This document shows, piece by piece, positions 11,089-27,257 of a DNA stretch of 51,721 bases (position 1 is its first letter; every line of letters begins with the position of its first letter). The position numbers and the translations under genes are program-made. The notes beneath the pieces are model-generated. The model did no database searches. It worked only from the letters and a program-made list of their open reading frames with translations, and was not told the DNA's origin. The stretch is taken from NCBI GenBank assembly GCA_025927835.1, contig JAICKR010000004.1, positions 1 through 51,721 on the forward strand, in the 5' to 3' direction. Source of the DNA: Jatrophihabitans sp. (lineage in GTDB: Bacteria > Actinomycetota > Actinomycetes > Mycobacteriales > Jatrophihabitantaceae).

Positions 11089-14000
11089 GTGTCGGACGGT
11101 CGCGGGCTCGAGATCGGGGTGCTCGGCGAGTTCACCGCGTCGCACGACGGCACCCTGCTCGACCTCGGCGGACCCCGGCAGCGCGCCGTGCTCGCGATGC
11201 TCGTCATCGGCCGCGGACGGCTCGTCAGCGCCGAACAGCTGATCGACAACCTGTGGGCGGACGACCGGCCGGCCAACGAGTTCGCCAGCCTGCAGTCCTA
11301 CGTTTCGCACCTGCGCAAGCGGCTCGAGCCCGAGGCGGCCGCGCGCACCCGCTCCGGTGTCATCGCCCGGCAAGCGCACGGCTACGCGGTGCGGCTCGCG
11401 CCGGATGCCGTGGACGCGTGGCGCTTCGAGCAGTTGCTGACCGCTGACGGCGGCGACGTCGTCCAGCGGCTGACCGAGGCGCTGGCGTTGTGGCGGGGTG
11501 CGCCGCTGGCCGACTATGCCGACAGGCCGTGGGCGCAACCGGAGATCGTCCGGCTGGACGAGCTGCGCTCGGTCGCCCGCGAACGACTGGCGCAGGCGCG
11601 CGTCGACCGCGGCGAGGCCGCGGTGCTGGTCGGCGAGCTCGAGACCATGGTCGTCGAGGCGCCGCTGCGCGAGGAGCGCTGGCGACTGCTCGCGCTCGCG
11701 CTCTACCGGGCCAACCGGCAGGCCGATGCGCTCACCGCGCTGCGCCGGGCTCGCACGACCTTCGCCGACGAACTCGGTGTCGACCCCGGGCCCGCGCTGC
11801 GCGCACTGGAAGCCGACATCCTCGCGCAGGCACCGTCGCTCGACGCGCGGGCGCCCGCGCCGAGGGTGTTCGTCCCGACCGCCGCACTCGTGATGGAACG
11901 CACCGTCGACGACCTCGCCGAGCGCGACGCCGAGCTGGCGCAGCTGCAGCAGGCGCTGGCGCGGCTCGCCGGCGGCCAGCCGACCGGCGTGCTGATCGAA
12001 GGACCGGCCGGCATCGGCAAGACCCGGCTGCTCGACGAGCTCGGCGCGCAGGCCCGCGAGCACGGCGTACGCGTCCTGCTCGCCCGGGGCAGCCCGCTGG
12101 AGCGCGCGTTCGGCTACGGCGTCGTGCGCCAGCTGCTCGAACCCGCCATCAATGACGACATGCTCTGTGCCGCAGCCGCGCCGGCGCGGGCGGTGTTCGA
12201 CCTCGCCGCTGAGCACAGCGAGGGCTCGCTCGCCGTGCTGCACGCGCTCTACGCGGTCACCGCGCAGCTCGCCGCCGAGGGCCCGCTGCTGCTCGGCATC
12301 GACAACCTGCAGTGGACCGACGCCCCGTCGCTGCGCTACCTCGCCTACGTCGCACGGCGGATCTCCGGCGTCCCGACGATGATCGCCGCGACGATGCGCA
12401 CCGGTGAGTCACACGAGATCGCCGACCTCGTGGCCGAACTCGCCTGGGACACCGACACGCTGCTGCTGCGCCCGCAACCGCTGACCGAGGACGCGACCAG
12501 CGGGCTCGTCGCGCGTGCGTACGGGCGGCCCGCCGCGCCCCTGTTCGTCGCCGCCTGCCACCGCACCACCTCGGGCAACCCCCTGCTGTTGCGTCAGCTG
12601 CTGCAAGCCCTCGTCACCGCGGACGTGAAGCCGGACGCCTCGCACGCACAGGCGGTGCTGGCCGTCGGCTCGCGTGCGGTGTCGAGCCAGGTGCTGCTGC
12701 GGCTGCGCCGGATGCCCGAGCCGTGCCGGCGCGTCGCGCGCAGCGTCGCGGTGCTGGGCGAAGCCGCACAGCTGCCGCATGTCGCCGCGCTGTCCGCGCT
12801 GCCGGAAGCCGACACGGCGGCGGCCGTCGCCACCCTCACCCGCGCCGAGATCCTGCGCGACGAGCACACGCTCGGTTTCGTCCACCCGATCGTCGCCGAG
12901 GCGATCTATCGCGACGTCCCCTCGGTCGAGCGCGGGCTCGAACACGAGCGTGCGGCCGCACTCCTGCTCGCGCGCGACGCCGGCCCGGAGCAGGTCGGCG
13001 CGCATCTCCTGCTCGCCCCGACCCGCGGCGACGCGACAACCGTCCGGACGTTGCGTGCGGCGGCGGGGCGGGCCGCCGATCGCGGCGCGGTCGACAGCGC
13101 CGTCACCTACCTGCGCCGCGCGCTCGACGAACCACCCGATGCCGCCGCCCGCCCGCACGTACTGCTCGAACTCGGCCTCCAGGAGGCGCTCGTCGACGGA
13201 CGGGCCGGCACCGAGCGGCTGCGCGCCGCCTACGAACGCGCCGACGACCCCGAAACCCAGGTACGCATCGCCACCGCCATCGCGCACACGCAGGTGTTCG
13301 CGAGCGAGCGCGGCGCGGCGGTCACGTTCGCCCGCGACGCCATGCGCCGGGTGCCCGATGGCATGGACGATGCGCGCGACGGCCTCACCGCGCTGCTGCG
13401 CATCGGCGGGCTCATGCAGGCCGTCGACCCGGCGCTGTGGCGCGACGACGACGTGCCGGAACCGACCGGCACCGGCGTCGGCGCGCAGATGTTGCGCGCC
13501 ACGCTCGGGTGGGAGGCGATGCTCGCCGGCACCGACCGCGAGCGTGCCGTGCGCCTCGCCCGACGGGCGACCGCGGACGACCGGCTCTGGCACGGCGACA
13601 CCGGGCTGCTCTGGTGCATCGCCGCTGCCACCCGCATGTACGCCGACGACGACCTCGGCGACTTCTGGCTGCGCACCCGCACCGCCGCGCACGCACGCGG
13701 CTCGCTGTTCGCGGTGCTCGCCGTCAACCAATGGGAAGGCGTGTGGCGCTGGCGGCGCGGCGAACTCGCCGAGGCCAAGGCACTCATCAGCGAGGCGCAC
13801 GAGCAGGACCGGATGTGGGGCGGGTCGGGCGTCGGGCTGTCCTATTCCTACGGCGCGCTCGTCGGCATCGATCTCGACCGCGGCGACCTCGACGGCGCGC
13901 GGGCGCTGCTCGGCGCCGCACCTGACGACGCGCGCCACGGCGACGGCGGCCGGCTGCTGCGGCTCGTCAGCGCCGGCATGCTCGTCGGCGACGGACGCTT

Positions 14001-14604
14001 CGTCGAGGCGCTGGCCGCGCTGGACGACATCCGCGACCCGGTCGGCGTCGTCAACCCTGCCTTCAACCCGTGGCGGCGGGTGCGTGCGGCCGCGCTGGCC
14101 GGGCTCGGTCGCGCCGACGAGGCGCTGCCACTCGTCGAGGAGGAGGTCGCGCTGTTGCGTGCCTGGGGCGCGCCGTCCGCGTTGGGGCTCAGCCTCACCG
14201 ACCTCGGTCGGACGACCGGACGCCGTGAGCATTTCGTCGAATCGGTCGCGCTGCTCGAGAACACCGACGCCGCCTACGTGCTGAGCCGGGCCCGGTTGGC
14301 GCTCGCCGAGCACCCCGACACCCCTGCGCCGGAGGCGATCGCGCTGCTGCGCCAGGCGGTCGACGGCGCCGTCGCGTGCGATGCGCACGGTGTCGCCGAG
14401 CGGGCCTGCGCGGCGCTGCGCCGGCACGGCGTGGACGCCCCGGACCTCCCGGTCCGCACCCCCGGCCCGTCCGCCACCCAGCAGCGGGTCGCCGCGCTCG
14501 CCGCCCGCGGCCTGGACGTCGCGGCCATCGCGCAGGCGCTGTTCCTCACCCCGCAGACCGTCCAGACCGCGCTGGGTGAGCTCGCCGTCGGGGGCGTCCG
14601 GTGA
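11089..14604 (+). CDS. SARP-LAL hybrid transcriptional activator (BTAD + AAA ATPase + C-terminal HTH)
   Basis: 1171 residues from GTG 11089, preceded by GGGAGGGAG. Residues about 5-95 form an OmpR-type winged helix (LEIGVLGEFTA, GGPRQRAVLAMLVI, SLQSYVSHLRKRLEP). Residues 98-240 are the helical BTAD domain of SARPs (FADELGVDPGPALRALEADIL). A STAND-type ATPase follows, with Walker A GPAGIGKT at 305-312 and Walker B LLLGIDNLQW near 400-408. A long helical sensor region fills most of the rest. The last 45 residues (SATQQRVAALAARGLDVAAIAQ, then LFLTPQTVQTAL) look like a LuxR-type HTH, shortened at the end. Such proteins integrate a signal with ATP binding and activate secondary-metabolism genes. 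The flanking exporter and oxidase genes carry matching repeat promoters, so it is very likely their activator. A TAGGCT -10 at 11062 and a ribosome site drive its own expression. Confidence 0.93.
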   Translation: MSDGRGLEIGVLGEFTASHDGTLLDLGGPRQRAVLAMLVIGRGRLVSAEQLIDNLWADDRPANEFASLQSYVSHLRKRLEPEAAARTRSGVIARQAHGYAVRLAPDAVDAWRFEQLLTADGGDVVQRLTEALALWRGAPLADYADRPWAQPEIVRLDELRSVARERLAQARVDRGEAAVLVGELETMVVEAPLREERWRLLALALYRANRQADALTALRRARTTFADELGVDPGPALRALEADILAQAPSLDARAPAPRVFVPTAALVMERTVDDLAERDAELAQLQQALARLAGGQPTGVLIEGPAGIGKTRLLDELGAQAREHGVRVLLARGSPLERAFGYGVVRQLLEPAINDDMLCAAAAPARAVFDLAAEHSEGSLAVLHALYAVTAQLAAEGPLLLGIDNLQWTDAPSLRYLAYVARRISGVPTMIAATMRTGESHEIADLVAELAWDTDTLLLRPQPLTEDATSGLVARAYGRPAAPLFVAACHRTTSGNPLLLRQLLQALVTADVKPDASHAQAVLAVGSRAVSSQVLLRLRRMPEPCRRVARSVAVLGEAAQLPHVAALSALPEADTAAAVATLTRAEILRDEHTLGFVHPIVAEAIYRDVPSVERGLEHERAAALLLARDAGPEQVGAHLLLAPTRGDATTVRTLRAAAGRAADRGAVDSAVTYLRRALDEPPDAAARPHVLLELGLQEALVDGRAGTERLRAAYERADDPETQVRIATAIAHTQVFASERGAAVTFARDAMRRVPDGMDDARDGLTALLRIGGLMQAVDPALWRDDDVPEPTGTGVGAQMLRATLGWEAMLAGTDRERAVRLARRATADDRLWHGDTGLLWCIAAATRMYADDDLGDFWLRTRTAAHARGSLFAVLAVNQWEGVWRWRRGELAEAKALISEAHEQDRMWGGSGVGLSYSYGALVGIDLDRGDLDGARALLGAAPDDARHGDGGRLLRLVSAGMLVGDGRFVEALAALDDIRDPVGVVNPAFNPWRRVRAAALAGLGRADEALPLVEEEVALLRAWGAPSALGLSLTDLGRTTGRREHFVESVALLENTDAAYVLSRARLALAEHPDTPAPEAIALLRQAVDGAVACDAHGVAERACAALRRHGVDAPDLPVRTPGPSATQQRVAALAARGLDVAAIAQALFLTPQTVQTALGELAVGGVR

Positions 14605-14610
14605 GCCGTC

Positions 14611-14642
14611 TCAAGCCGACCGCAAGTCCGCGGGGCGACGAT
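14611..14642 (+). promoter_or_regulatory. SARP-type promoter of the first flavo-oxidase: two nCAA repeats plus -10
   Basis: TCAAG 14611 and GCAAG 14622 lie 11 bp apart, starting 7 bases after the regulator's stop codon. The second 7-bp unit ends at 14628, and GACGAT (nAnnnT) begins 8 bp later at 14637. The register is the same as in the promoters at 9381 and 16063. Confidence 0.68.
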
Positions 14643-14677
14643 GGTGTCACCTTGCCGACAGTGAGGAGCACCGTCCG

Positions 14678-16057
14678 TTGAGCAGATCCACGACCGCATC
14701 ACCGCCGCCTGCGGCAGCCGAGTCGCTGCGCGGGCTCTGCGGCGGTGCGGTGCACCTGCCCGGCGACCCGGGCTTCGACATGGCGAGCTCGCCGTGGAAC
14801 CTGCAGGTGCAGCATCACCCCGCGGCGGTCGCGTACCCCGCCTCGCCGCGCGAGGTTGCCGACGTGCTGCGCGCGGCCCGGGGCGCCGGCCTGCAGGTCG
14901 CGCCGCAGGGCACCGGGCATGGCGCGGCTCCCCTCGACGGTCACCTCGGCGCGTCGGTGCTGCTGCACACCGCCGGGTTGAACGAGCTGTCGATCGACGT
15001 CGACACGCGCCGGGCGCGGGCCGGCGCCGGCGTGCTGTGGGGCGACCTGGCCGAGGCCGCCGGGCGCGACGGGCTCGTCGGGCTGCACCCGTCCGCCCCG
15101 GACGTGGGTGTCGTCGGCTACTCGATCGGCGGCGGCATCGGCTGGTACGCGCGCCGCCTGGGCCTGCAATGTCACTCCATCACCGCCGCCGAGGTCGTCC
15201 TCGCCGACGGCAGCGTCGTGCGGGCCAGCGCCGACGAGGAGCCCGAGTTGTTCTGGGGACTGCGCGGCGGCGGCATGCCGCTCGGCGTCGTCACCGCCCT
15301 GGAGTTCCAGCTCTACCCCCTGGACACGGTGGTCGCCGGCTTCCTCGCCTGGGACCGGACACGGATGGAGCAGGTCCTTCCGGCCTGGGCGCAGTGGACG
15401 ACGACGGCGCCCGACGCGGCAACCACGTCGCTGCGGCTCGTGACCGCACCGCCGATGCCGCAGATCCCGGCCGAGCTGCACTTCCGCGAACTGCTCGTCA
15501 TCGACGGCGCGGTGCTGGGCAGCGACGACGAGGCGGCGGCGATCCTCGCGCCGCTGCGTGCGCTGCGTCCCGAGTTCGACACGGTGACCCGGGTACCGGC
15601 GCCGTCGCTCGTCCGGCTGCACCTCGAGCCCGAGGGCCCGACCCCCGGATACGCCAGCAGCCGGCTGATGAGCGGGCTGCCCGACGACGCGATCGCCGCG
15701 GTGCTCGACATCGCCGGCCCGGGCGCCGCGGACGGCCCCGACATCACCGAGTTCCGTCAGCTGGGCGGCGCGCTGCACCGCCCGAACGAGGGCGCCGCGC
15801 TGTCGTCGCTGGACGGCGAGTTCCTCGTCCTCGGTTTCGGGCTGCGTCCGGACCCGGCCGAGTGGGACGAGGCACGCGAGCAGGCGGTGCGGTTGCTGGA
15901 CGCGTTGCAGCCGTGGCAGAACGGCCGCGAGTACCTGCCGATGCTCGACGAGCGCAGTGACACCCGTAAGGCGTTCCCGCCCGGTGTGCACACGCGGCTG
16001 TCCGCGTTGCGCGCCGCCGTCGACCCGGATCGGTTGTTCGTCGGGCCGCACCTGTAG
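14678..16057 (+). CDS. FAD-linked oxidase, berberine-bridge-enzyme / 6-hydroxynicotine-oxidase type (paralog 1)
   Basis: 459 residues from TTG 14678, with GAGGAG 9 bases upstream; no better start agrees with the promoter. The PCMH-type FAD domain is clear: AVAYPASPREVADVLRAARGAG near 45-65, then APQGTGHGAA, whose His is the likely 8-alpha covalent FAD anchor, and VGVVGYSIGGGIGWYARRLG around 150. The Cys that gives a second covalent bond in bicovalent BBE enzymes is absent (SAPDVGVVGY). The substrate half ends with a BBE-like segment (YLPMLDERSDTRKAF). Such enzymes oxidise alcohols, amines or phenolics with O2, releasing H2O2. It has its own SARP-type promoter and a paralog directly downstream. 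Confidence 0.9.
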   Translation: MSRSTTASPPPAAAESLRGLCGGAVHLPGDPGFDMASSPWNLQVQHHPAAVAYPASPREVADVLRAARGAGLQVAPQGTGHGAAPLDGHLGASVLLHTAGLNELSIDVDTRRARAGAGVLWGDLAEAAGRDGLVGLHPSAPDVGVVGYSIGGGIGWYARRLGLQCHSITAAEVVLADGSVVRASADEEPELFWGLRGGGMPLGVVTALEFQLYPLDTVVAGFLAWDRTRMEQVLPAWAQWTTTAPDAATTSLRLVTAPPMPQIPAELHFRELLVIDGAVLGSDDEAAAILAPLRALRPEFDTVTRVPAPSLVRLHLEPEGPTPGYASSRLMSGLPDDAIAAVLDIAGPGAADGPDITEFRQLGGALHRPNEGAALSSLDGEFLVLGFGLRPDPAEWDEAREQAVRLLDALQPWQNGREYLPMLDERSDTRKAFPPGVHTRLSALRAAVDPDRLFVGPHL

Positions 16058-16165: not shown

Positions 16166-17536
16166 ATGACGTACACACTTTCCCTGACCGAAGTCCTCGA
16201 CGAGCTGCGCGCCGTCGTCACCGGCACGGTCGCCGAGCCCGGCGACGCCGCATACGCCGAGCTCGTCACCCCGTGGAATGTCGCCGTGGAGATGCAGCCG
16301 ACCGCGGTGGTCGCGGTACGCAGCGCGGCCGACGTCAGCGAGACTGTCGCGTTCGCGCGCCGGCACGGCATGACGGTCGGCGTACAGGCCACCGGCCACG
16401 GCGCGATCTCCTCACTCGCCGGGCACCTGCTCGTCGTCACCCGGGAGCTGGACGAGCTGACGGTGCACCCGGCCGAGCGGTGGGCGCGCGCCGGCGCCGG
16501 TGTGAAGTGGGCGCGGGTCATCGAGGCGGCCGCCCCGCACGGGCTCGCGCCGCTGAACGGGTCGTCGAGCGACGTCGGCGTGGTCGGCTACACGACCGGT
16601 GGCGGCGTCGGGCCGATGGCGCGGACGTTCGGCCTCGCCTCCGACCGGGTGCGGGCGTTCGAGGTCGTCACCGGTGACGGCGTGCTGCGGCGCGTGACGC
16701 CGACTCAGCACGCCGACCTGTTCTTCGCGCTGCGCGGCGGCAAGGGCGTCGGCGGCATCGTCACCGCCGTCGAGTTCGACCTGCTGGACGTGCCGACGTT
16801 CTACGGCGGCGCGCTCTACTTCGACGGTGCGGACATCCCCGCCGTCATCGACCGTTGGCGCTCGTGGTCGGTTGCACTGCCCGAGCGGGCCACGACCTCG
16901 TTCGTGATCCTCCAGCTGCCGGACGGCCCGGAGTTCCCGCCGTTCCTGGCCGGCCGCACGTCGATCGGCGTCCGGTTCCTGTGGGTCGGCGACGCCGCGG
17001 ACGGTGCGCAGCTGCTCGCACCGATGCGCGCGGTCGCGCCGATGCTGTTCGACGACGTGGCGGTCAAGCCGTACGAGGCCATCGACTCGGTGCACGCCGA
17101 CCCCGTCGACCCGATGCCGGTGACAGACCGCGGCATGCTGCTGACGTCACTGACCGACGAAGCGGTCGAGCGGTTGCTCGCGCTGGTCGGCCCGGGTTCG
17201 GGTTCGCCGCAGGTCGCGGTCGAGATCCGGCAGGCCGGTGGGGCGCTGGGCCGCGAAGGCGCGCACCCGTCCGCGTTCGACCATCGCGGCGCCGGCTACA
17301 GCGTGCTGACCATCGGCATCGCGTTCGACCCGCGCGTCGCTCCGCATTCAGCGGCCCTGTTCCGGTCGTTGTCGGAGTGGGATTTCGGTGGTGTGTGGCC
17401 GAACTTCGCACCGCCGCACGACGCAGTGACTGCGCGGCGAGCGTATGGCCCGGCCACGCTCGCCCGGCTCTCCTCGGTGGCCGAGCAGTACGACCCGGAC
17501 GGCGTCCTCGCCGCAGGAGCCTTCGCCCGGGCCTGA
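16166..17536 (+). CDS. FAD-linked oxidase, BBE-like (paralog 2)
   Basis: 456 residues from ATG 16166, with GGAGG 8 bases upstream. It shares the domain order of the preceding oxidase: VAVRSAADVSETVAFARRHG, GVQATGHGAISS with the likely FAD-linking His, SSSDVGVVGYTTGGGVGPMART without the second anchoring Cys, and LFFALRGGKGVGGIVTAVEF. The C-terminus lacks the full BBE segment and ends ARLSSVAEQYDPDGVLAAG, the usual close of such oxidases. Sequence identity to paralog 1 is moderate, so the two may act on successive intermediates rather than be redundant. It has the largest SARP repeat array of the three promoters and a strong hairpin terminator behind it. Confidence 0.9.
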   Translation: MTYTLSLTEVLDELRAVVTGTVAEPGDAAYAELVTPWNVAVEMQPTAVVAVRSAADVSETVAFARRHGMTVGVQATGHGAISSLAGHLLVVTRELDELTVHPAERWARAGAGVKWARVIEAAAPHGLAPLNGSSSDVGVVGYTTGGGVGPMARTFGLASDRVRAFEVVTGDGVLRRVTPTQHADLFFALRGGKGVGGIVTAVEFDLLDVPTFYGGALYFDGADIPAVIDRWRSWSVALPERATTSFVILQLPDGPEFPPFLAGRTSIGVRFLWVGDAADGAQLLAPMRAVAPMLFDDVAVKPYEAIDSVHADPVDPMPVTDRGMLLTSLTDEAVERLLALVGPGSGSPQVAVEIRQAGGALGREGAHPSAFDHRGAGYSVLTIGIAFDPRVAPHSAALFRSLSEWDFGGVWPNFAPPHDAVTARRAYGPATLARLSSVAEQYDPDGVLAAGAFARA

Positions 17537-17761: not shown

Positions 17762-20700
17762 ATGCCGCCTCGCCCGCGCACCAACAAGGCCACGACGAAG
17801 GCCGTGAAGAAGGTCGCGAAGAAGGCGGTCAAGAAGGCGGTACCGGCCAAGAAGACCGCGACGAAGGCAGCGACCGTCGGCACCGTCAAGCCGGTCACCT
17901 TCACGCAGGGCACGGCGCAGCTCATCGAGCTGCAGGTGCCGCTACCGGGCGCACCACAGCCCGACGTCGAGTTCCGGATCGTGCGCCCCGACGACCTCGT
18001 CGTGCTGGCGGTGCGCTGCTACGCGATGGACCTGGTCAAGGACGACCTCGGCCCGGCACTGGTGCCGGAGGGCGACGACGCGTTCATGATCGTCAGCTAC
18101 ACGTTCCAACACGTCGGTGAGCAGGCGTTCCTCGAACAGGGCTTCCCGCCACACGTCGTCGAAGCTCGGCACACGCCGGTCGAAGTACTGGTCGCCGAGC
18201 CGTCCCGCCTTGCCTACGACGTCCCGGCAGACGAGCGCATACCGTTCAGCACCGACGGCGTGCTCGCGGCGCTGAGCCGGTTGCAGCTGCGCGTCGTGCC
18301 GCTGGCCACGCCGCGCCCGGCGGCCACCCGGGTGATCAAGTTCCCGCTCGTCACGCTCGAGGACGGGACCGTGTTGCAGTACTCGGGCAACGGCATCTCC
18401 CTGGTGAAGAACCGCGGCAGGCAGACCGCGCCGCAGACGGTCGACGAGCTCATCACCCACTCCGCGTCGCTACGCGCGGCGCGCACCCTGCTCGCGTACG
18501 CGGGCGCCATCGACACGGTCGCCCATTCCTCGCTGGGCGACGTCACCCGTGGCCCGATCACGATCAACCCCGGGCCGAGGCGAGCCACTCGCGCGCCGCG
18601 ATTCGACGAGACGGCGATCGAAGCGCCGTGGCGGCTGATGATCTCGCCGAGCACGCTGGGCGGGTTCACGCACGCCACGAAGCCGGTGCACGCGCCGCAG
18701 GACGTGAACCGGATCGAGCTGTGGCACAGCCGTCTCGGCGTCCGCCACATCGACCCGGACGGGGACATCACGATCGACGAACGCGACGACCCGCAGCGCG
18801 CCATCCGCGCGGTCTGGGCGCGCGACGACGCCGGCGCTCGGCCGGTGTCGGACATCAACAGCCACCCGTTCCGCACGTCGCTCAACGGACGGGACCGATC
18901 GGTGCTCGTGACCGAGAGCGCCGACACGTCCATCGCGAAACCGCAGCCGGTCGACGCCAAACGGCTGTACCTGTCGAGCCAGGGCGCGTGGCTCGATCTG
19001 CACGGCGCGTGGGACACCGACCTCTACGGGGCGCTGCCGGGCAAGATCGAGTCCTGGGACCACATCGCGCCGATGGGACGCGACCAGTTCGTCAAGGTCG
19101 TCTACCCGGGCTACCTCTACCCCTTCGGGCACAAGGCGTCGTTCATCAAGGTCACCGAGCGGCGCATCGACCCCGACGTGGTGCCGCCGGTCGCCTATCT
19201 GTACCAGCACTTCTTCATCCTCGTGAAGGAGCCGATTCGCTACTACGACAGCCTCGACATGCCGTTCGGCAAAGTGGAGCTGCGTCCGGTCGTGACACCG
19301 TTCCTCGACGACCCGAACGACCTCGCCAACCCCAACGCCATCAAGAACCAGGACCTCTTCTGGCCGACGCTGGACGGCGTCAAGTTCGAGTTCACGCTCG
19401 ACTGTCTGGACCAGGAGAAGCGGCGCGTCGTGCTGCAGGCGCCGCTGATGTTCGTCAGCGCATCCTTCGGCAGCACCAAGGCCGAGCGAAACCTCGTCCG
19501 CGACTCGTACGTGAAACCCGACACCGGCAAACCCGCCCCTCGCGAGATCCCGGGGCTGTCCCGCTCCATCGCGCTCGCGAAGAGCCGGAAGCCGGGCGAC
19601 ACCGCGTTCGAGACGCACGCGCTGCGCTTCACCGGTGAACCCGGCACGCCGACTGCGCCGACCTCGACGCCGAAACTGTCCGGCGCGAACATCGTCGTCC
19701 CGGCGATGAAACACCTCGCCCCGGCAGCCGACGCCGTGGACGTCCATTACGCGACGCCGTACCTGAACCACGGCTTCGGCGGCGTGAACGGCACCCCGCA
19801 GGTCTTCCTCGAGCTCGACACGATGTCGCCGATCGAGTTCGGCGACGGCAGCCCTGCGGCCAGCACCGCGAAGTCGGGCGGCTTCCTGCAGCCGAGCCTG
19901 CCGGTGCGTGGTCTGTCGCGGGCGCTGGGCACGGTCGGTCAGGTCGACAGCATCGTCAACCCGCCGGCGGGCAAGCAGCCGTTCGACCCGATGACGTTCC
20001 TCGATGGGGTGCTGCCGAAGCTGTTCGGGCTCTTCTCCCTGGTCGACATCCTCGAAGCGGTCGGTCTCGACAAGGCGCCGTCCTTCGTTACCGAGACCCT
20101 GAACGAGGTCGCACAGCTGCTTGCCGACCTGCAGTCGCTGCAGCAGACGCTCGAGAACGGCGTCACCGAGCTCAGCACGCTGGCCGTCAACGCGGCGACC
20201 GCACCGCAGCAGCAGGCGGCCGACGCCGCGAAGACCGCACTCGACGCGGTCAAGGCCGCGTTCGCGCCGAAGCTCGCCGCGCTCACGGGCGACATCTCTG
20301 CGCTGACGTCCTCCGGTGACGTCGCGACGTTCACCACGAACGCGACCGCGATCCTCACCGACCTCGCCGCAGTGCTCACCACGCTCGACCAGCAGACCAA
20401 GACGCTGCAGCTGCCGCCGGTCGTCAAGGCGCAGCTGCAGCGGCTCGTCGCGGCACTGGCGCCGCTCATGGATGTCGCGAAGATCGCGAAGCAGATCCAG
20501 TCGATCGTCGCCTTCGTTCAAGGCCTTGACCCGAGCAACCTCGCACTGAAGTGCAGCTTCACCTGGCAGCCGCCGCTGAAGAACTACCCCGACGGCCCTG
20601 CCGACAAGGCGCTGTTCTACGTCGACCCGCAGGGCCTCGTCCTCTCCATCGAGGCGCGCGCGTCCGGCAAGGACGGGGTCGGCGTCGACGTGCTCGCGCA

Positions 20701-21589
20701 GCTGTCCGACTTCGGGCTGAACCTGTTCGAGGACTCGACGCTCATCACGATCGCGATCGACCGGCTGTCGTTCCGGGCCAGCAACGGGAGCAAGCCCGAG
20801 GTCGACGTCGTCATGCGCAACATGGAGTGGCTCGGCGCGCTCTCGTTCATCCAGACGCTCGAGACACTCATCCCGTCGGACGGGTTCAGCGACCCGCCGT
20901 ATGTGGACGTCGACGCGAGCGGCGTGAAGGCCGGCTTCGATCTCGCGCTGCCCAGCATCGGCGTCGGCGTCTTCAGCCTGGAGAACATCTCCCTCGGCGC
21001 CGACGTCAACGTGCCGTTCCTCGGCGACGCGGTCACCGTCGGCTTCTACTTCTGCACGCGGGAGAAGCCGTTCCGGCTCACCGTCATGTGCGTCGGCGGC
21101 GGTGGGTTCGTCGGCATCCGGCTCTCGCCCAAGGGCCTCGTGCTGCTCGAGATGTCGCTGGAGGCGTGTGCCCAGCTCGGCATCGACCTCGGCGTGGCCT
21201 CCGGGTCGGTATCGATCACGATCGGGGTCTACCTGCGGCTGGAGGGCGAGAAGGGTTCGCTCACCGGTTACTTCCGCATCCGCGGCGAGGTCGACGTCCT
21301 CGGCGGCATCTTCTCCGCGTCGATCACGCTGGAACTCTCACTGACCTACCAGTTCGACACCGGCAAGCTGACCGGACGTGCCTCGATCCAGATCGAGGTC
21401 ACCATCTTCTTCTTCTCCTTCTCGGTCGAGGTGTCGTGCCAGCGGACGCTGGCAGGCTCGAACGGCGACCCGACCTTCGCCGAGCTGCTCGGCATCACCA
21501 ACGGCGGGCAGGACCTGCCCGATCCCGGCGCACCGGACGGCGGAGTCCCTGACTGGACCGACTACTGCGACGCGTTTGCGAGCGTGTGA
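17762..21589 (+). CDS. Giant protein of unknown function with Lys/Ala-rich tail, helical middle and beta-rich C-terminal half
   Basis: 1275 residues from ATG 17762. Residues 1-45 are strongly basic, with many Lys in AxKK-type repeats (TKAVKKVAKKAVKKAVPAKK), like actinobacterial histone-like or HupB tails. Residues about 50-740 show no recognised domain. Residues about 770-935 are helical and Leu/Ala-rich with coiled-coil character (LLADLQSLQQTLENGVTEL). From about 945 onward the chain has many alternating-polarity strands (VSITIGVYLRLEG, GYFRIRGEVDVLGG, SASITLELSLTYQF, IQIEVTIFFFSFSVEVSC), as in long beta-sheets or hydrophobic grooves. There is no signal peptide. It is followed after 3 bases by another giant gene, so the two proteins are probably made together and may form a complex. 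I do not recognise a characterised family. Confidence 0.85.
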   Translation: MPPRPRTNKATTKAVKKVAKKAVKKAVPAKKTATKAATVGTVKPVTFTQGTAQLIELQVPLPGAPQPDVEFRIVRPDDLVVLAVRCYAMDLVKDDLGPALVPEGDDAFMIVSYTFQHVGEQAFLEQGFPPHVVEARHTPVEVLVAEPSRLAYDVPADERIPFSTDGVLAALSRLQLRVVPLATPRPAATRVIKFPLVTLEDGTVLQYSGNGISLVKNRGRQTAPQTVDELITHSASLRAARTLLAYAGAIDTVAHSSLGDVTRGPITINPGPRRATRAPRFDETAIEAPWRLMISPSTLGGFTHATKPVHAPQDVNRIELWHSRLGVRHIDPDGDITIDERDDPQRAIRAVWARDDAGARPVSDINSHPFRTSLNGRDRSVLVTESADTSIAKPQPVDAKRLYLSSQGAWLDLHGAWDTDLYGALPGKIESWDHIAPMGRDQFVKVVYPGYLYPFGHKASFIKVTERRIDPDVVPPVAYLYQHFFILVKEPIRYYDSLDMPFGKVELRPVVTPFLDDPNDLANPNAIKNQDLFWPTLDGVKFEFTLDCLDQEKRRVVLQAPLMFVSASFGSTKAERNLVRDSYVKPDTGKPAPREIPGLSRSIALAKSRKPGDTAFETHALRFTGEPGTPTAPTSTPKLSGANIVVPAMKHLAPAADAVDVHYATPYLNHGFGGVNGTPQVFLELDTMSPIEFGDGSPAASTAKSGGFLQPSLPVRGLSRALGTVGQVDSIVNPPAGKQPFDPMTFLDGVLPKLFGLFSLVDILEAVGLDKAPSFVTETLNEVAQLLADLQSLQQTLENGVTELSTLAVNAATAPQQQAADAAKTALDAVKAAFAPKLAALTGDISALTSSGDVATFTTNATAILTDLAAVLTTLDQQTKTLQLPPVVKAQLQRLVAALAPLMDVAKIAKQIQSIVAFVQGLDPSNLALKCSFTWQPPLKNYPDGPADKALFYVDPQGLVLSIEARASGKDGVGVDVLAQLSDFGLNLFEDSTLITIAIDRLSFRASNGSKPEVDVVMRNMEWLGALSFIQTLETLIPSDGFSDPPYVDVDASGVKAGFDLALPSIGVGVFSLENISLGADVNVPFLGDAVTVGFYFCTREKPFRLTVMCVGGGGFVGIRLSPKGLVLLEMSLEACAQLGIDLGVASGSVSITIGVYLRLEGEKGSLTGYFRIRGEVDVLGGIFSASITLELSLTYQFDTGKLTGRASIQIEVTIFFFSFSVEVSCQRTLAGSNGDPTFAELLGITNGGQDLPDPGAPDGGVPDWTDYCDAFASV

Positions 21590-21592
21590 GCG

Positions 21593-24500
21593 ATGGCCGT
21601 CATCGAATCCTTCCTCGTCACCGCACTGCCGTTCAGCGCCGACCCGGCGCAACACCGGCACATCTCGCTGTTCATCACCCACCGGCTTACGCCGAACGAT
21701 GCGCAGGGCGAGGTGGGTGACTTCCCGAACATCGCTCGGTGGACGGACCTGCTCGCCGGCTCGACGGTTACCGTCACCGGGCACACCTCCGGCGGCGCCG
21801 CGCGCGCGATCGCCGTCACGCCGCAGTGGGCGCAACTCGACACGACACTGTGGCCGCGCGTGTTCTCCGAGGACCTACCCGTGCTGCCATGGAACACACC
21901 CGACCCGGCGAGCAAGCAGTGGCGCACCTTCCCGGCGCACCGCATGCAGGCGCACGCCCTGACGGCGCACGCGCTGAGCACGTACTCCTCGCCCGTCACG
22001 CCACCGTCGACCAGCCAGAGTTTGCTCGCCGCGCCTCTGCTGCAGGCGCTGTTCCACGTGCGCGACTCGTCGGTCGCGCACCTGCTGGAGTCCCAGCCCG
22101 AGCTCGACGCGCGGGTGACGAAACTGCTCGACAGCGGCACCGCGCATGGCCCGTTCGTCGCCGATGTCGACGCGTCGCTGCGCTACTTGATGCTGCTGGC
22201 CGGCGATGCGCATCTCGCGCATCGCTATTACGACCGTCCCGAAGAGCAAGGCGAGTACCACGCGAAGCCGACCGGCGCGAGGACGCCTCCGGTGGTGCAG
22301 CCGCCGCCGGACTTCCACCGGCGCGCGAGCCTCATCGGCGACCTGTCGCCGCTGCTGCGCAAGCTGGGCCTGGTGATCGACCTCGAGGTCATCGACGTGA
22401 GTCAGCTCGCCGGGCTTGCCGACATCACCGCGCAGGTCACCGTCCCCGGTCTGGCGAATCCGATCACGACGCAGCCGCGGGTGAGCTGCCAACTGGCCGG
22501 CGGCACCTTCACCGCGGTGTCGACGGGCGACTACCACCAGGCGATGCTGCGGCTCGGCGACGAGGACCTCTACACGCTGCTCGATCTCGACCCGGACGCG
22601 TCCGGACTCAAGCTCGAGCAGTACGTCCGCAACATCCCGCGAATGGCCGCCGTCGAGGCCAACGGCGATCCCGGCAACGCGGCGCCGTCCACGCTGCGCG
22701 CCACCGGATTCGCGATCGCGCGCAACGACCGCGCCACCCCGGTCAAGGAACAGCTCACCGACGCTCCGAAGAAGGACGCGGACCTGGCGTCCGGCAAGGC
22801 GGCACCGCTCTACCTCGAGGATGTCGCCCGCGGCGTGCGGCTCGAGGTGTGGGATGACGTGTCGAAGATCTGGCACTCCCTGCACCGGCGACTGCTGACC
22901 GTCGACATCGACGGCGCGGGCGGGCCGGTGCTCAGCGAGGCCCCGGACTGCGGCTTCCTGCAGGGCGCGGCGCTGACGCGCAGCGGGGACGACCCGAACG
23001 CGCCGCTGAACCTGCACGAGGTCCTCGCCGGCTGGGACGGGTGGTCGCTGTCGGCGCCTCGGCCCGGCAAGGTCGTCGTGCACGACGACGATCCGGGTCA
23101 CGACCGCGAGCACGAGAAGCTCGTCGACCCGCCCGTCCCCGTTCCGGACCCGGACCACCCGGTCGCGAACACCGTGAAGGTGGAGCCCGGCACGCTGCCG
23201 CGGCTGCGCTACGGGCGCAACTACTCGTTCCGGGCGTGGGCCGTCGACCTCGCCGGGAACAGCTCGCCGCACACCGTCGCCGGGCCGGCGGACGCAGGCA
23301 CGTCCGGGGTCAGCGGAACCGGACCCCCAGCCGGCGCGGGGAACGCCCCCGCGAGGGCGAGCGCGCCCGACGGGCCACTGGCATCGCACGCCGCCGAAGC
23401 GGCCGCAACCGAGCGATTGAGCGCGCTGGGTCCCACCACGCTCGGCGCCGGTGCCACCGCGAAGACGCTGTCCGAGGATCTGCGCCAACTGCGCGGCGCC
23501 GTTCTGCAAGCACGTCCACTGCCCCAGGGCCTGCAGCTCGACGCGAGCGACGCGCCACGCAGCGTTGCCGAGGTCGCGACCATCACCGGCCACGAGGAGC
23601 TGGATCGGGTGATCAAGGCGCGCCGGACCGCGCGCGTGCCCGCGCCGGCAGCCGCTGCGCGTCAGGCGCTCGTCGAGCAGGCGATGACGACGCAGCTGCA
23701 CGCGGCACCCGAGCTCGTCCGCCGTACCGACACGCAGGTCGCGTCGGCGACGTTCGCGCAGGCGCTCACCACCTCCGCGGCGTCGTTGCCCGAGTTGCAG
23801 CAGGTCGGGCTCGGCGGCGTGTACGTCGGCCTGCTGGACGGGGTCACCGCGCCGCGTCCGTTCCTGCGCTGGGATCCGGTGCTCGAACCGACCGTCGTTC
23901 CCCGCTTCGCCTACACCGACGCCGAATCGCTGCTCACCCTCGTGATCCGCTCCGGCGTGGAAGGGCCGGGCCCGGACGGCATCACCATGACGGTCGTCCC
24001 GCCCGATCAGTACGTCGCGTCCGTGCAAGCCGCCACGCCTGACTACGCGACGAACTGGCGTGCGGACTCGCAACGGCATCTCGTCCCGCCGAAGGCCACG
24101 CAGTACGAGTGCGAGCTGCACGGTCTCTTCGACGCCGCGATGGGTGCCGGCGACCCGGCGTCGATCAAGGCGGCGCTCGCGGTCGCGCTGCGCGAGTCGG
24201 GCACGTTGACCGACACGACGATCGCCGACCTGGCGGAGCCGGGCGTGCGCAACCCGGTCGTCGGCATCGAGCTCGTCACCGGCCCGACGGCGGACGACCC
24301 GCTGCACACCGACCCGGCGCAGATCCCGCGCGGCGACGGGCTCAGCCGCGGCCAGTACGCGATTCACACCGAGGAAGACCTGGCCCTGCCGTACCTGCCC
24401 GACCCGCTTGCAGACGGGGTGTCCTTCATGTTCCCGGACGCGGGCAAGGGCACGGTGCTCTCCGGCCTGCTCGCGATGGAGGGGACGCACCTGCCGTACG

Positions 24501-26236
24501 GAGGCGCGTGGCCCGAGCGGATCCCGTGGCGGATGGTGCTGGCGAGCTCCGACACGCTGCGCGCCGAGGCGGACGGTGCTGTTGTCACGTTCGGGCTGCC
24601 TGCGGGGCAGCAGCTGCGCATGCGGCTGAGCAGCTCGTTGCTCGAGAAGTCGCTCGACCTGCTCGGGCTGTGGCGCAGCATGCCTGCCAATGTGGCGTCC
24701 GATCCGATGCTGACCGAGGCAGCGGTCGACGGGTGGCTGTGGGCACTCACGCCGGCCACGTCGCTGCGGCTCGTGCACGCCGTGCCGCGCCCGCTGCTCG
24801 CGCCGCACTTCACGCTGCTGCGGCCCACCCGCACCGCCGGCAGCACGACGGTCACGCTCGTCGCCGGTGTGGACGTCCACGGCGCGAGCACCGACCGCCT
24901 CGACATCGAGGCGAAGTGGACCGAGATCGTCGACGACGTCACGAAGCCCGCGGTCGAACGGGTCGACGCCAACGCGCAGGCCTGCCACACGACGGTCGCC
25001 GCGGACGAGGACCTCGCCGTCCTGGCTGACGCCGACTTCGACCTGCCGCTGCCGGACGGCACGGTCGTCCATGTGCACGCCGCACAGCACCACCTCGGCG
25101 ACACCAAGCACCGGATGATCGACTACCGAGCGCGCGGCACGACACGCTTCGCGGAGTACTTCGACCCGCACCTGTTCCCCACGACGGACGACAAGTCGGT
25201 CGCCGGGCCATGGCGGCGCGTGAACGTGCCGAGCAGCGCGCGCCCACCGAAGCCGGTGGTGCACGACGTGCTGCCGCTGCTGCGCTGGCACGAGGAGACG
25301 GAGCAGAATCAGCCGTTCGCGCTGTCCCGCACCCGGGCGTGCGGCGTGCGCATCTACCTCGAGCGGCCGTGGTTCGCGTCGGGCAACGGCGAGCTGCTCG
25401 GTGTGCTGCTGCGTTCGGGGCCCGATGCGCTGACCGGCAACGAGGTCAGCCAGTGGGGTGCGGATCCGGTGTTCCGCCAGCAAGGCCCGGTCGAGCGCGG
25501 CGAACTGCCGCTCACCGACTTCCTACAGGCGAGCGGTCTGGACGACAGCGACGAGGACGCGCGGCCGGTGCGACGACCCGCCATCGAGCACCTCGTCGAT
25601 CTGCCGGGCACGCCGGAGGCGTACGTGCTCGGGTACCGACCCGAGTGGTCGGCCGAGCGCAACATGTGGTTCGTCGACATCGCGGTCGACCCGGGTACGG
25701 CGTTCTGGCCGTTCCTGCGCCTGTCCGTCGCGCGCTACCAGCCGAGCTCGCTGCCAGGGCTCGCGCTGTCGCCGGTCGCGAAGTGCGACTTCGTCCAGTT
25801 GCTCCCACCCCGCACCGCGCTGCTCTCCCGGCCCGACGCCGATACGGCCCGCATCATCGTCACGGGACCGGTCGGCATCCCGCACCTGCCCAACTCGCGC
25901 GACGACGGGGTGGTCGCGCTGTTCGAGTCGCGGGTCATGATCGCCCGGCTGGAGAAGCGGGTGCGCGCCGTACCGACCGACCTCGGCTGGACCACCGTCC
26001 ACACGCAGGTGCTGCCGGTACGCGGCATGTCCGGCGCCACCGTGTCGTGGGCGGGCGAGCTGACGCTGCCCAAGCCGATCGCGCCGGTGCGGCCGGGGGC
26101 GAACTCGCAGTGGCGGGTCGTCGTCGAGGAGTGGGAGGGGCTGCCGGCCGACCCGGTGCCCTACGAGGGCGCGGTCGTCGCCGACGGCCTGCGGCTCGGA
26201 CGGCGCATCATGTACGCCGACCAACTGCACCTCTGA
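21593..26236 (+). CDS. Giant protein of unknown function, partner of the upstream giant gene
   Basis: 1547 residues. ATG 21593 is 3 bases after the preceding stop and lacks a strong ribosome site, pointing to translational coupling. No signal peptide or clear membrane spans. Recognisable only in outline: an Fn3-like strand pair near residue 540 (LRYGRNYSFRAWAVDLAGNSSP), then a low-complexity Ala/Gly/Pro linker at about 560-600, then alternating beta-rich segments with many Trp, Pro and Asp (RFAYTDAESLLTLVIRSG; VVPPDQYVASVQAATPDYATNW; YVLGYRPEWSAERNMWFVDIAVD). The layout suggests an extended multi-domain scaffold or surface structure rather than an enzyme. No homology to the partner is evident by eye. 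Confidence 0.85.
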   Translation: MAVIESFLVTALPFSADPAQHRHISLFITHRLTPNDAQGEVGDFPNIARWTDLLAGSTVTVTGHTSGGAARAIAVTPQWAQLDTTLWPRVFSEDLPVLPWNTPDPASKQWRTFPAHRMQAHALTAHALSTYSSPVTPPSTSQSLLAAPLLQALFHVRDSSVAHLLESQPELDARVTKLLDSGTAHGPFVADVDASLRYLMLLAGDAHLAHRYYDRPEEQGEYHAKPTGARTPPVVQPPPDFHRRASLIGDLSPLLRKLGLVIDLEVIDVSQLAGLADITAQVTVPGLANPITTQPRVSCQLAGGTFTAVSTGDYHQAMLRLGDEDLYTLLDLDPDASGLKLEQYVRNIPRMAAVEANGDPGNAAPSTLRATGFAIARNDRATPVKEQLTDAPKKDADLASGKAAPLYLEDVARGVRLEVWDDVSKIWHSLHRRLLTVDIDGAGGPVLSEAPDCGFLQGAALTRSGDDPNAPLNLHEVLAGWDGWSLSAPRPGKVVVHDDDPGHDREHEKLVDPPVPVPDPDHPVANTVKVEPGTLPRLRYGRNYSFRAWAVDLAGNSSPHTVAGPADAGTSGVSGTGPPAGAGNAPARASAPDGPLASHAAEAAATERLSALGPTTLGAGATAKTLSEDLRQLRGAVLQARPLPQGLQLDASDAPRSVAEVATITGHEELDRVIKARRTARVPAPAAAARQALVEQAMTTQLHAAPELVRRTDTQVASATFAQALTTSAASLPELQQVGLGGVYVGLLDGVTAPRPFLRWDPVLEPTVVPRFAYTDAESLLTLVIRSGVEGPGPDGITMTVVPPDQYVASVQAATPDYATNWRADSQRHLVPPKATQYECELHGLFDAAMGAGDPASIKAALAVALRESGTLTDTTIADLAEPGVRNPVVGIELVTGPTADDPLHTDPAQIPRGDGLSRGQYAIHTEEDLALPYLPDPLADGVSFMFPDAGKGTVLSGLLAMEGTHLPYGGAWPERIPWRMVLASSDTLRAEADGAVVTFGLPAGQQLRMRLSSSLLEKSLDLLGLWRSMPANVASDPMLTEAAVDGWLWALTPATSLRLVHAVPRPLLAPHFTLLRPTRTAGSTTVTLVAGVDVHGASTDRLDIEAKWTEIVDDVTKPAVERVDANAQACHTTVAADEDLAVLADADFDLPLPDGTVVHVHAAQHHLGDTKHRMIDYRARGTTRFAEYFDPHLFPTTDDKSVAGPWRRVNVPSSARPPKPVVHDVLPLLRWHEETEQNQPFALSRTRACGVRIYLERPWFASGNGELLGVLLRSGPDALTGNEVSQWGADPVFRQQGPVERGELPLTDFLQASGLDDSDEDARPVRRPAIEHLVDLPGTPEAYVLGYRPEWSAERNMWFVDIAVDPGTAFWPFLRLSVARYQPSSLPGLALSPVAKCDFVQLLPPRTALLSRPDADTARIIVTGPVGIPHLPNSRDDGVVALFESRVMIARLEKRVRAVPTDLGWTTVHTQVLPVRGMSGATVSWAGELTLPKPIAPVRPGANSQWRVVVEEWEGLPADPVPYEGAVVADGLRLGRRIMYADQLHL

Positions 26237-26252: not shown

Positions 26253-27257
26253 ATGCGGGCACGATTCGTCGCTCTGTGGGTCGCAGCACTGACGCTGGTG
26301 GGCAGCTTCGTCTACGGCGTCACGACCAGCCCTGCGAAGACCCCGAGTCATCAGGCGGCACCACGCGCCAAGCCCACTGGGTGCGGCCACGGCAAGAACA
26401 CCTGCACCCCGACGCCGACGACCACCGTTCCGACGACGCCGTCGAGCAGCACCTCGACGACTCCCCCACCGCCCGCGCACAAGGTGATGGTGATCATCGA
26501 GGAGAACCACAGCCAGACCGAGGCGATCACGTTGATGCCGCATCTGGCGTCGTGGGCGAACACGTACGGCAAGGCGACGGCCTACACCGCGGTGACGCAC
26601 CCGTCGCTGCCGAACTACCTCGCGATCGCGGGCGGCAGCACGTTCGGCGTCGCAGACGACAACGCCCCGAGCTCGCACCCGATCAGCGGCGACTCGGTGT
26701 TCGACCAGACGATCACCGCCGGTCTGCACGCCAAGACCTACGCCGAGGGCATGACCAGCAACTGCATGCTCAGCAACACCGGCCGTTACGCGGTCAAGCA
26801 CAACCCGTGGGCGTACTTCAACGGTGCCACCCAGCGTGCGAACTGCAACGCCAACGACGTGCCGCTCGGCACCACGAGCACCGGTAATCTGCGCAACGAC
26901 ATCGCCGCGGGCACCCTGCCGAACACCGGCATGATGATCCCCGACCTGTGCAACGACGCGCACGACTGCAGCCTGCTCACCGCGGACAACTGGCTCAACG
27001 GGTGGGTGCCGCAGCTGATGAGCGGGCCTGACTACACCTCCGGCAACCTCACCATCGTCATCACCTTCGACGAGGACGACTCGTCCGCCGGCAACAACGT
27101 CGCCTTCGTGGTCATCGATCCGCGACTGAGCGGCAAGGTCGTGGCGAGCGCCGCGACCCACTACAGCCTGACCCGCTGGCTGGACGCGAACGTCGGTGCG
27201 CCGCTCCTGCGCAGCGGCGCGACCGCGCCCGATCTGAAATCCGCCTTCGGCATCTAG
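26253..27257 (+). CDS. Secreted or anchored phosphoesterase-family protein (acid phosphatase / phospholipase C-like)
   Basis: 334 residues. A signal peptide or single N-terminal anchor (ALWVAALTLVGSFVYGV) is followed by a Thr/Pro/Ser-rich linker of about 40 residues, a usual stalk for exported actinobacterial enzymes. The catalytic domain carries the hallmarks of the Pfam phosphoesterase family: VMVIIEENHSQTE with the metal-binding Glu/Asn, THPSLPNYLAIAGG with the Asn/Ser region, DNWLNGWVPQLM, ITFDEDDSS with metal-binding Asp residues, and HYSLTRWLDANVG near the end. It should hydrolyse phosphate esters or phospholipids outside the membrane. It follows the giant gene pair closely but has its own promoter. 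Confidence 0.88.
   Translation: MRARFVALWVAALTLVGSFVYGVTTSPAKTPSHQAAPRAKPTGCGHGKNTCTPTPTTTVPTTPSSSTSTTPPPPAHKVMVIIEENHSQTEAITLMPHLASWANTYGKATAYTAVTHPSLPNYLAIAGGSTFGVADDNAPSSHPISGDSVFDQTITAGLHAKTYAEGMTSNCMLSNTGRYAVKHNPWAYFNGATQRANCNANDVPLGTTSTGNLRNDIAAGTLPNTGMMIPDLCNDAHDCSLLTADNWLNGWVPQLMSGPDYTSGNLTIVITFDEDDSSAGNNVAFVVIDPRLSGKVVASAATHYSLTRWLDANVGAPLLRSGATAPDLKSAFGI

What the first reader, a model, noticed from the sequence alone, without database searches (positions are those of the whole stretch)
17762..26236. Two coupled giant genes of unknown function covering 8.5 kb
The 1275- and 1547-residue proteins are 3 bases apart, have no signal peptide and no recognised enzyme domain. The first joins a lysine-rich tail, a coiled-coil-like section and about 330 residues of alternating-polarity strands, which could form a long hydrophobic groove or sheet. 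The second has an Fn3-like element and many beta segments. A scaffold, secreted particle or lipid-handling structure are all possible. This is the best candidate here for an undescribed system.
Basis: partly seen in the sequence, partly recalled or inferred. Interest (0 to 1): 0.75.

Follow-up and report, generated by a model that had tools for sequence, protein, structure and literature searches.

The report
Undescribed giant gene pair in bacteria
Two very large neighbouring genes of unknown function turn out to travel together as an inseparable pair across many bacterial phyla, one of them carrying a long greasy sheet and swappable address tags, which suggests an undescribed two-part machine for holding fatty or other water-shy material.

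Summary
Two intact genes (A, 1275 aa; B, 1547 aa; 3 bases apart) match no curated family and no solved structure. They are co-conserved: A lies just upstream of B in 76 of 80 fetched relatives (the other four are cut at contig ends), and B occurs in 13 of 14 A-positive but 0 of 26 A-negative genomes. The pair is rare, patchy and spread over at least seven phyla; the A and B trees mirror each other (r = 0.89). Both genes are under purifying selection, strongest in A's C-terminus. No third gene is conserved beside them.

A has a basic N-terminal tail, a beta-rich half, a helical bundle, and a sheet with one almost charge-free face, predicted to curve like a beta-barrel or lipid-transfer-protein sheet. 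B is predicted to end in tandem Fn3-like sandwiches. A's N-terminus varies by lineage: basic tail, LysM repeats, or a Tat signal (9 of 90). Three pairs have a tatA-like gene of their own.

Best explanation (confidence 0.35): a two-subunit carrier for lipid or other hydrophobic cargo, placed by A's N-terminal tag. Co-conservation, tags and fold are computed; cargo binding is inferred. Rivals: envelope scaffold, pore former, plasmid-borne defence.

The parts
17762..21589 (+). Gene A, 1275 aa
   Evidence: homologue directly upstream of B in 76 of 80 loci
17762..17896 (+). A residues 1-45: lysine/alanine-rich basic N-terminal tail; lineage-variable region
   Evidence: sequence; the same position carries LysM or a Tat signal in relatives
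17987..20101 (+). A residues 76-780: beta-rich N-terminal half with conserved motifs (RPxDLL, ELWHTRLG, GRDHYVRVVYxGYLFPFGHRA in the family consensus)
20105..20518 (+). A residues 782-919: predicted helical bundle
   Evidence: model helices 707-844; four-helix-bundle matches, Z about 12
20540..21451 (+). A residues 927-1230: antiparallel sheet; strongly amphipathic strands from residue 1044 (base 20891)
   Evidence: more constrained than A as a whole in 7 of 7 species pairs
21554..21580 (+). Conserved C-terminal motif of A, here WTDYCDAFA (residues 1265-1273)
   Evidence: motif within the last 20 residues of 75 of 84 A sequences
21590..21592 (+). 3-base spacer between the stop of A and the start of B
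   Evidence: gap of 30 bases or less, or ORF overlap, in 74 of 84 pairs
21593..26236 (+). Gene B, 1547 aa
24782..26233 (+). B residues about 1064-1547: region equivalent to the Fn3/Ig-like sandwich tandem of the B model (boundary approximate, from shared invariant residues)
26253..27257 (+). Phosphoesterase-family gene (PF04185) 17 bp after B; co-transcription is inferred and it is not conserved with the pair

Best explanation
A and B are the two subunits of one complex that binds lipid or another hydrophobic cargo. In A, the C-terminal amphipathic antiparallel sheet, next to a helical bundle, forms a trough or near-barrel whose greasy face meets the cargo. B, a chain ending in Fn3/Ig-like sandwiches, caps or completes the particle. 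A's variable N-terminus is an address label: a basic tail (attachment to DNA or other polyanions, as here), LysM repeats (peptidoglycan) or a Tat signal (export already folded, with unsignalled B riding along, sometimes with its own TatA). Shown by computation: the pair, its co-inheritance, the tags and the predicted fold. Inferred: that A and B bind each other, that the greasy face binds lipid, and that B is co-exported.
For: Pairing: A directly upstream of B in 76 of 80 loci; B in 13 of 14 A-positive and 0 of 26 A-negative genomes; mirror-tree r = 0.894 against a permutation maximum of 0.175; 49 of 61 splits shared. Sheet: across the 11 strands of at least 6 residues from A residue 1044 on, charged or amide residues average 4% on one face and 32% on the other, and the hydrophobic face is the more conserved (3.22 against 2.74 bits). 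dN/dS of the last 330 residues of A is below that of the whole gene in 7 of 7 species pairs. Foldseek's top PDB matches for A are microsomal triglyceride transfer protein (E 2e-6), with lipovitellin fourth. One A relative has a Pfam apolipoprotein A1/A4/E match at E = 7.7e-8, below the curated cut-off. Tags: Tat signals in 9 of 90 A sequences and none in 88 B; tatA-like genes in 3 of 97 loci, all within 300 bp of A or B, two of them confirmed against solved TatA; LysM in six A sequences. The window tail resembles the lysine-rich PAKKA tail with which the Rhodococcus lipid-droplet protein MLDS binds DNA (PMC5504291, passages seen).
Against: The lipid-transfer matches are poor globally (TM 0.06-0.10, rmsd above 30 A, probability 0.14-0.54), and outer-membrane barrels align better over the sheet (Z up to 13.4). 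No lipid enzyme recurs among neighbours: at most 3 of 103 nearest genes share any family, and the window's phosphoesterase has no counterpart in the other loci. Hydrophobic faces are often the more conserved ones simply because they are buried. Folded complexes of several hundred kDa would be extreme Tat cargo. A basic tail was found in only 6 of 90 A sequences by a crude criterion.
Confidence: 0.35

Rival explanations
1. A and B build a cell-envelope or extracellular scaffold (adhesin, coat or particle). The sandwich tandem of B and the amphipathic sheet of A are assembly surfaces, and LysM, Tat or basic tails anchor the structure.
For: Tandem Fn3/Ig-like sandwiches in B (PorU C-terminal part Z 9.7 over 98 residues, fibronectin fragments Z about 9). 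LysM and Tat tags on A. Giant, variable-length versions on plasmids.
Against: Most A sequences (69 of 90) show none of the three tags and B never shows a Tat signal; the greasy sheet is the most constrained part tested, which would be unusual for a plain scaffold.
Confidence: 0.25
2. A is a pore former: its C-terminal sheet closes into a transmembrane barrel in a target membrane and B is the partner or delivery subunit of a two-component antibacterial or anti-host toxin.
For: The sheet aligns best with monomeric outer-membrane barrels (CymA Z 13.4, 185 residues, rmsd 4.8; OmpG Z 13.0). Patchy, transferred distribution.
Against: No immunity-like third gene is conserved; the hydrophobic face is more conserved than the polar face, the reverse of what is usual for lipid-exposed barrel surfaces (the rule is recalled); no match to a toxin family in Pfam.
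Confidence: 0.15
3. The pair is a plasmid- or island-borne anti-phage or anti-plasmid defence module.
For: In the rhizobial giant branch the pair lies beside Dpd genes (L114), SIR2 (L017), HsdR/DUF4062/restriction genes (L110) and an N-6 methylase/UvrD/nuclease cluster (L116).
Against: Nearest neighbours in the main branch are mostly ordinary metabolic and regulatory genes; nine A sequences carry export signals. The PADLOC library was not searched.
Confidence: 0.08

Closest known systems
Large lipid transfer proteins (microsomal triglyceride transfer protein, lipovitellin/vitellogenin)
   Same: Order of a beta-rich N-terminal part, a helical part and large amphipathic sheets (their architecture is recalled); top Foldseek matches of A
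   Different: No sequence match; global superposition is poor (TM about 0.1); two bacterial genes; mostly no secretion signal
MLDS, the lipid-droplet protein of Rhodococcus (PMC5504291, passages seen)
   Same: Apolipoprotein-like part plus a lysine-rich tail with PAKK-type motifs (resemblance only)
   Different: MLDS is a small single-gene protein and its lysine-rich tail is C-terminal; no giant partner is described in the passages seen
Outer-membrane beta-barrels (CymA, OmpG)
   Same: Long amphipathic antiparallel hairpins; the best structural alignment of A residues 1043-1234
   Different: No Sec signal; A ends in a helix and a conserved WxxYCxAFA motif, not a beta strand; also found in monoderm bacteria (Paenibacillus, Streptomyces)
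Fibronectin type III and alpha-2-macroglobulin/complement domain tandems
   Same: C-terminal part of B is a run of similar sandwiches
   Different: Only single-domain or loose multi-domain similarity (rmsd about 9 A or more over several domains); no sequence match

Membership tests
Large lipid transfer protein superfamily | Vitellogenin N-terminal domain recognisable by profile | tested here: not met
   Pfam scans of window A (E up to 1) and of 16 A relatives (E up to 0.1) list no such family
Large lipid transfer protein superfamily | Overall fold (N-sheet, helical arch, A- and C-sheets) | tested here: inconclusive
   MTP and lipovitellin rank 1, 2 and 4 in Foldseek, but TM 0.06-0.10 and rmsd above 30 A
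Large lipid transfer protein superfamily | Binds or transfers lipid | not testable with these tools
   needs biochemistry
Outer-membrane beta-barrel | Amphipathic antiparallel strands forming a closed barrel | tested here: inconclusive
   Z up to 13.4 with CymA over 185 residues; closure cannot be read without coordinates
Outer-membrane beta-barrel | Sec signal peptide and terminal beta-strand signal | tested here: not met
   Window A starts with a basic tail without a hydrophobic stretch and ends in a predicted helix plus a short tail; no signal-peptide program was available
Rhs/Tc-type giant toxins | Rhs, SpvB, MidN/MidC or Tc domains | tested here: not met
   No such Pfam family in window A or B or in the 16+16 relatives
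Tat substrates | S/T-R-R-x-F/L-L motif followed by a hydrophobic stretch at the N-terminus | tested here: met
   Met in 9 of 90 A relatives (one, L016, borderline), not in the window's A or B
MLDS-like lipid-droplet proteins | Localisation on lipid droplets through an apolipoprotein-like domain | not testable with these tools
   Apolipoprotein match only in one distant relative (E 7.7e-8, below cut-off)
Contractile injection systems | Sheath, tube and baseplate genes near the pair | tested here: inconclusive
   None among the 25 commonest families of 103 nearest neighbours; rarer families were not displayed, and the recurrent flank clusters were not all named

The most novel reading that the evidence does not exclude
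The A-B pair is a bacterial counterpart, of independent origin, of animal lipoprotein assembly: a horizontally spread two-gene lipid particle in which one subunit holds lipid on an amphipathic sheet and helices, and a swappable N-terminal label sends it to the nucleoid or inclusions, to the cell wall, or out of the cytoplasm by Tat with a dedicated TatA.
Probability: 0.22. Interest if true: 0.9.

Novelty: categorically new. Interest (0 to 1): 0.7.

Why it matters
Gene pairs of 8-15 kb are costly, yet this one is kept under purifying selection in about 2% of sampled genomes of the window's phylum (6 of 296) and in scattered members of at least six other phyla, including cultured and tractable species (Cupriavidus metallidurans CH34, Achromobacter, Sinorhizobium meliloti, Streptomyces, Mycobacterium). 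If it handles lipid, bacteria would have a protein particle for hydrophobic cargo unrelated in sequence to known systems. If not, it is still a widespread unassigned two-subunit machine with a ready experimental handle.

Tried and rejected
Rejected: (1) Chance ORFs in high-GC DNA (dN/dS). (2) Phage or virus origin: no tblastn match of A in 50,697 phage records, no B relative in viral contigs, no convincing PHROGs family, no convincing viral fold for A. (3) A conserved operon with a third gene: none found. (4) An association with lipid enzymes suggested by the window's phosphoesterase and by single patatin, GMC-oxidoreductase and lipase-like neighbours: not recurrent. (5) A and B as homologues of each other: profile comparison gives one 36-column match, probability 0.7%, E 0.079. 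(6) Hits to peroxiredoxin, Baculo_PEP_C and phrog_6183 are noise over short or helical stretches. (7) The Tat call for L079 was dropped because the stretch after RR is not hydrophobic. (8) A guess from memory that A might be related to DUF6603: no Pfam hit to it, and no paper holds the term.

No whole-length match to any solved structure was listed for A or B; only parts of the models were really tested there. VIA-align jobs were 2 of 4 used.

Rows dropped before counts: structure alignment A6 holds the window and 70 of the 76 loci with A (L046, L047, L048, L063, L071, L086 left out as near-copies); A7 holds 63 of 80 B plus the window (near-copies, partial or broken B, and L074/L091 with artificial starts left out). 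The 103 neighbours of A8 come from a reduced list of loci (near-copies, the window and the giant-branch plasmids left out by hand, only genes of 120 aa or more within 1500 bp).

Literature searches found no paper on this pair; the family has no name to search by, so this is weak evidence. Of the papers, passages of PMC5504291 were seen; for all others only the search listing with the start of the abstract.

Full report
Observation. The two ORFs are exactly as described: A at 17762-21589 (1275 aa) and B at 21593-26236 (1547 aa), + strand, 3 bases apart. They are far longer than the stop-free runs expected by chance at 70% GC (maximum 727 codons in 50 simulations) and have the codon-position GC pattern of genes. 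The window is the whole of contig C20 of a 3.3-Mb draft genome in 255 contigs, estimated 76% complete.

No known family. Pfam, NCBIfam and PHROGs gave no significant match for either protein. Of 16 diverse relatives of each scanned against Pfam, one A has LysM domains and one B a Big_2 match at E = 0.0068; the rest are single weak matches, mostly over the helical part. Single-sequence and profile searches of all PDB sequences found nothing meaningful.

A real, widespread, patchy pair. tblastn of A against 72,556 plasmid records hit 17. In all 7 fetched records (L011-L017) a second giant gene follows A; in 6 of 7 it is a BLASTP relative of B, while in L017 the 2569-aa gene in that place shows no BLASTP similarity to the others. 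A scan of 84,980 species genomes with a B profile confirmed 184 relatives; the best 80 were fetched. A lies directly upstream on the same strand in 76 of 80; the other four (L027, L054, L066, L098) start at a contig end. In a further check, B was found in 13 of 14 A-positive and in 0 of 26 A-negative genomes; the exception, G020, is a 3.1-kb contig with a weak A match. The A-negative genomes were chosen from those listed as lacking A. Prevalence of A: 3 of 61 relatives, 9 of 200 genomes of the order, 6 of 296 of the phylum; each tally includes the window's own genome. Neither of the two same-genus genomes has it.

Inheritance. In 64 loci the A and B trees correlate at r = 0.894 (maximum of 999 permutations 0.175) and share 49 of 61 splits. 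Phylum labels need 12 changes on the A tree where 6 is the minimum, with, for example, an Oscillospiraceae bin inside Pseudomonadota and three Pseudomonadota rows among Actinomycetota. Some of these are metagenome bins, so single placements may be contamination; transfer of the pair as a unit is the likely reading. Both genes are under purifying selection in 7 of 7 species pairs (dN/dS 0.08-0.41 for A, 0.07-0.28 for B); for A the last 330 residues are more constrained than the whole in 7 of 7, for B in 4 of 7.

Context. In 74 of 84 pairs the gap is 30 bases or less or the ORFs overlap (starts are first possible codons, so overlaps are upper bounds). No third gene is conserved: the commonest flank clusters are scattered in position and strand or reflect Achromobacter synteny, the adjacent same-strand genes tested are unrelated to one another, and among 103 nearest neighbours no family occurs more than 3 times. 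The next gene downstream is on the opposite strand in 46 of 75 loci. The pair is therefore a self-contained two-gene module. In the window a PF04185 phosphoesterase follows B by 17 bp, but no other locus has its homologue.

Anatomy of A. The model of residues 76-1275 (71 sequences) has mean pLDDT 82.2 and pTM 0.67; model numbers are shifted by 75 to give A residues. A beta-rich half (to about 780) is followed by a helical bundle (782-919; four-helix-bundle matches, Z about 12) and then about 17 strands (927-1230). From residue 1044 on, one face of the strands is strongly hydrophobic. Over the 11 strands of at least 6 residues, charged or amide fractions average 0.04 on that face and 0.32 on the other, and the hydrophobic face is the more conserved (3.22 against 2.74 bits). 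Residues 1043-1234 align with outer-membrane barrels (CymA Z 13.4, 185 residues, rmsd 4.8; OmpG Z 13.0), while Foldseek's first whole-chain matches are microsomal triglyceride transfer protein and, fourth, lipovitellin, with poor global superposition. The C-terminal motif WxxYCxAFA is present in 75 of 84 A sequences.

Anatomy of B. The model of a complete 1203-residue relative (L085, residues 4-1203; 64 sequences) has mean pLDDT 88.6 and pTM 0.71. The tested part (model 775-1200) is a tandem of Fn3/Ig-like sandwiches (PorU Z 9.7 over 98 residues, fibronectin fragments about Z 9); Foldseek also lists mastigoneme, insulin-receptor and alpha-2-macroglobulin/complement chains. Z values near 8-9 may mean only a common arrangement.

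Address labels. The N-terminus of A differs between lineages while the body is conserved. The window has a lysine/alanine-rich tail; a crude filter found such tails in 6 of 90 A sequences. Mycobacterium, Mycolicibacterium, Williamsia and Nocardia members carry LysM (five by pattern; L036 by Pfam). Nine of 90 begin with a Tat-type signal: Streptomyces L014, S. meliloti L015 and L116, Ruegeria L016 (borderline), R. ruizarguesonis L110, A. vitis L114, Kapaibacteria L090 and Armatimonadota L095 and L099. None of 88 B did. A tatA-like gene was found in 3 of 97 loci, always beside the pair: just after B in L015 and L111 (44 and 21 bp) and 297 bp before A in L099; two match solved TatA at E = 1.2e-7 (L015) and 6.6e-12 (L099). 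L111 has no recognisable A in the fetched stretch. That Tat exports folded proteins and can carry an unsignalled partner is recalled knowledge.

Mechanism. The best-supported reading is a two-subunit carrier for lipid or other hydrophobic material whose place in the cell is set by the N-terminal label of A. The pair, the co-inheritance, the labels and the fold class are computed; the A-B contact, the cargo and the co-export of B are inferred. The parallel with MLDS, which combines an apolipoprotein motif with a DNA-binding lysine-rich tail (PMC5504291, passages seen), and the apolipoprotein match in one relative point the same way but do not prove it. Against it stand the equally good or better barrel matches, the lack of recurrent lipid genes nearby, and the missing coordinates. 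An envelope scaffold, a pore former and, for the rhizobial giant branch near defence genes, a defence role remain possible.

Novelty. 'Categorically new' refers to the family level: no curated family, no solved relative by sequence, and no paper found by eight searches, which is weak because the pair has no name. The mechanism itself may prove to be of a known kind.

Noticed in passing
L015 22685-22858, L111 16576-16713, L099 1-204: tatA-like genes beside the pair in lineages with Tat-type A (in L111 A itself was not found); an unusual pairing of a giant substrate with its own TatA.
   Followed up: partly
L017, L110, L114, L116: On rhizobial and Agrobacterium plasmids the giant version (A of 2277-3106 aa) lies beside defence genes: SIR2, restriction genes, N-6 methylase/UvrD/nuclease, Dpd genes.
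   Followed up: partly
L032 6309-22790: Nocardia abscessus carries two A-B pairs in tandem.
   Followed up: no
L013 15794-20117, L038 9881-13934, L114 9419-14957: Apparently broken copies: A in two ORFs (L013), B in three ORFs (L038), B in two ORFs (L114).
   Followed up: no
L031 14524-15447, L032, L038: A related gene of about 307 aa follows the pair in Mycobacterium and Nocardia (70-72% identity); by eye it looks peptidoglycan-binding, and it resembles part of the Williamsia tyrosinase gene after B. No PDB match.
   Followed up: partly
window 23275-23820 (approximate): Alanine-rich insertion of roughly 180 residues in the window's B, absent from the six relatives in alignment A3.
   Followed up: no
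window 11089-14604: Large SARP-type regulator (BTAD, AAA_16 and Trans_reg_C domains) upstream, followed by two FAD-binding oxidoreductases (14381-16057, 16166-17536); relatives of both oxidoreductases also lie near the pair in Crossiella (L087).
   Followed up: partly
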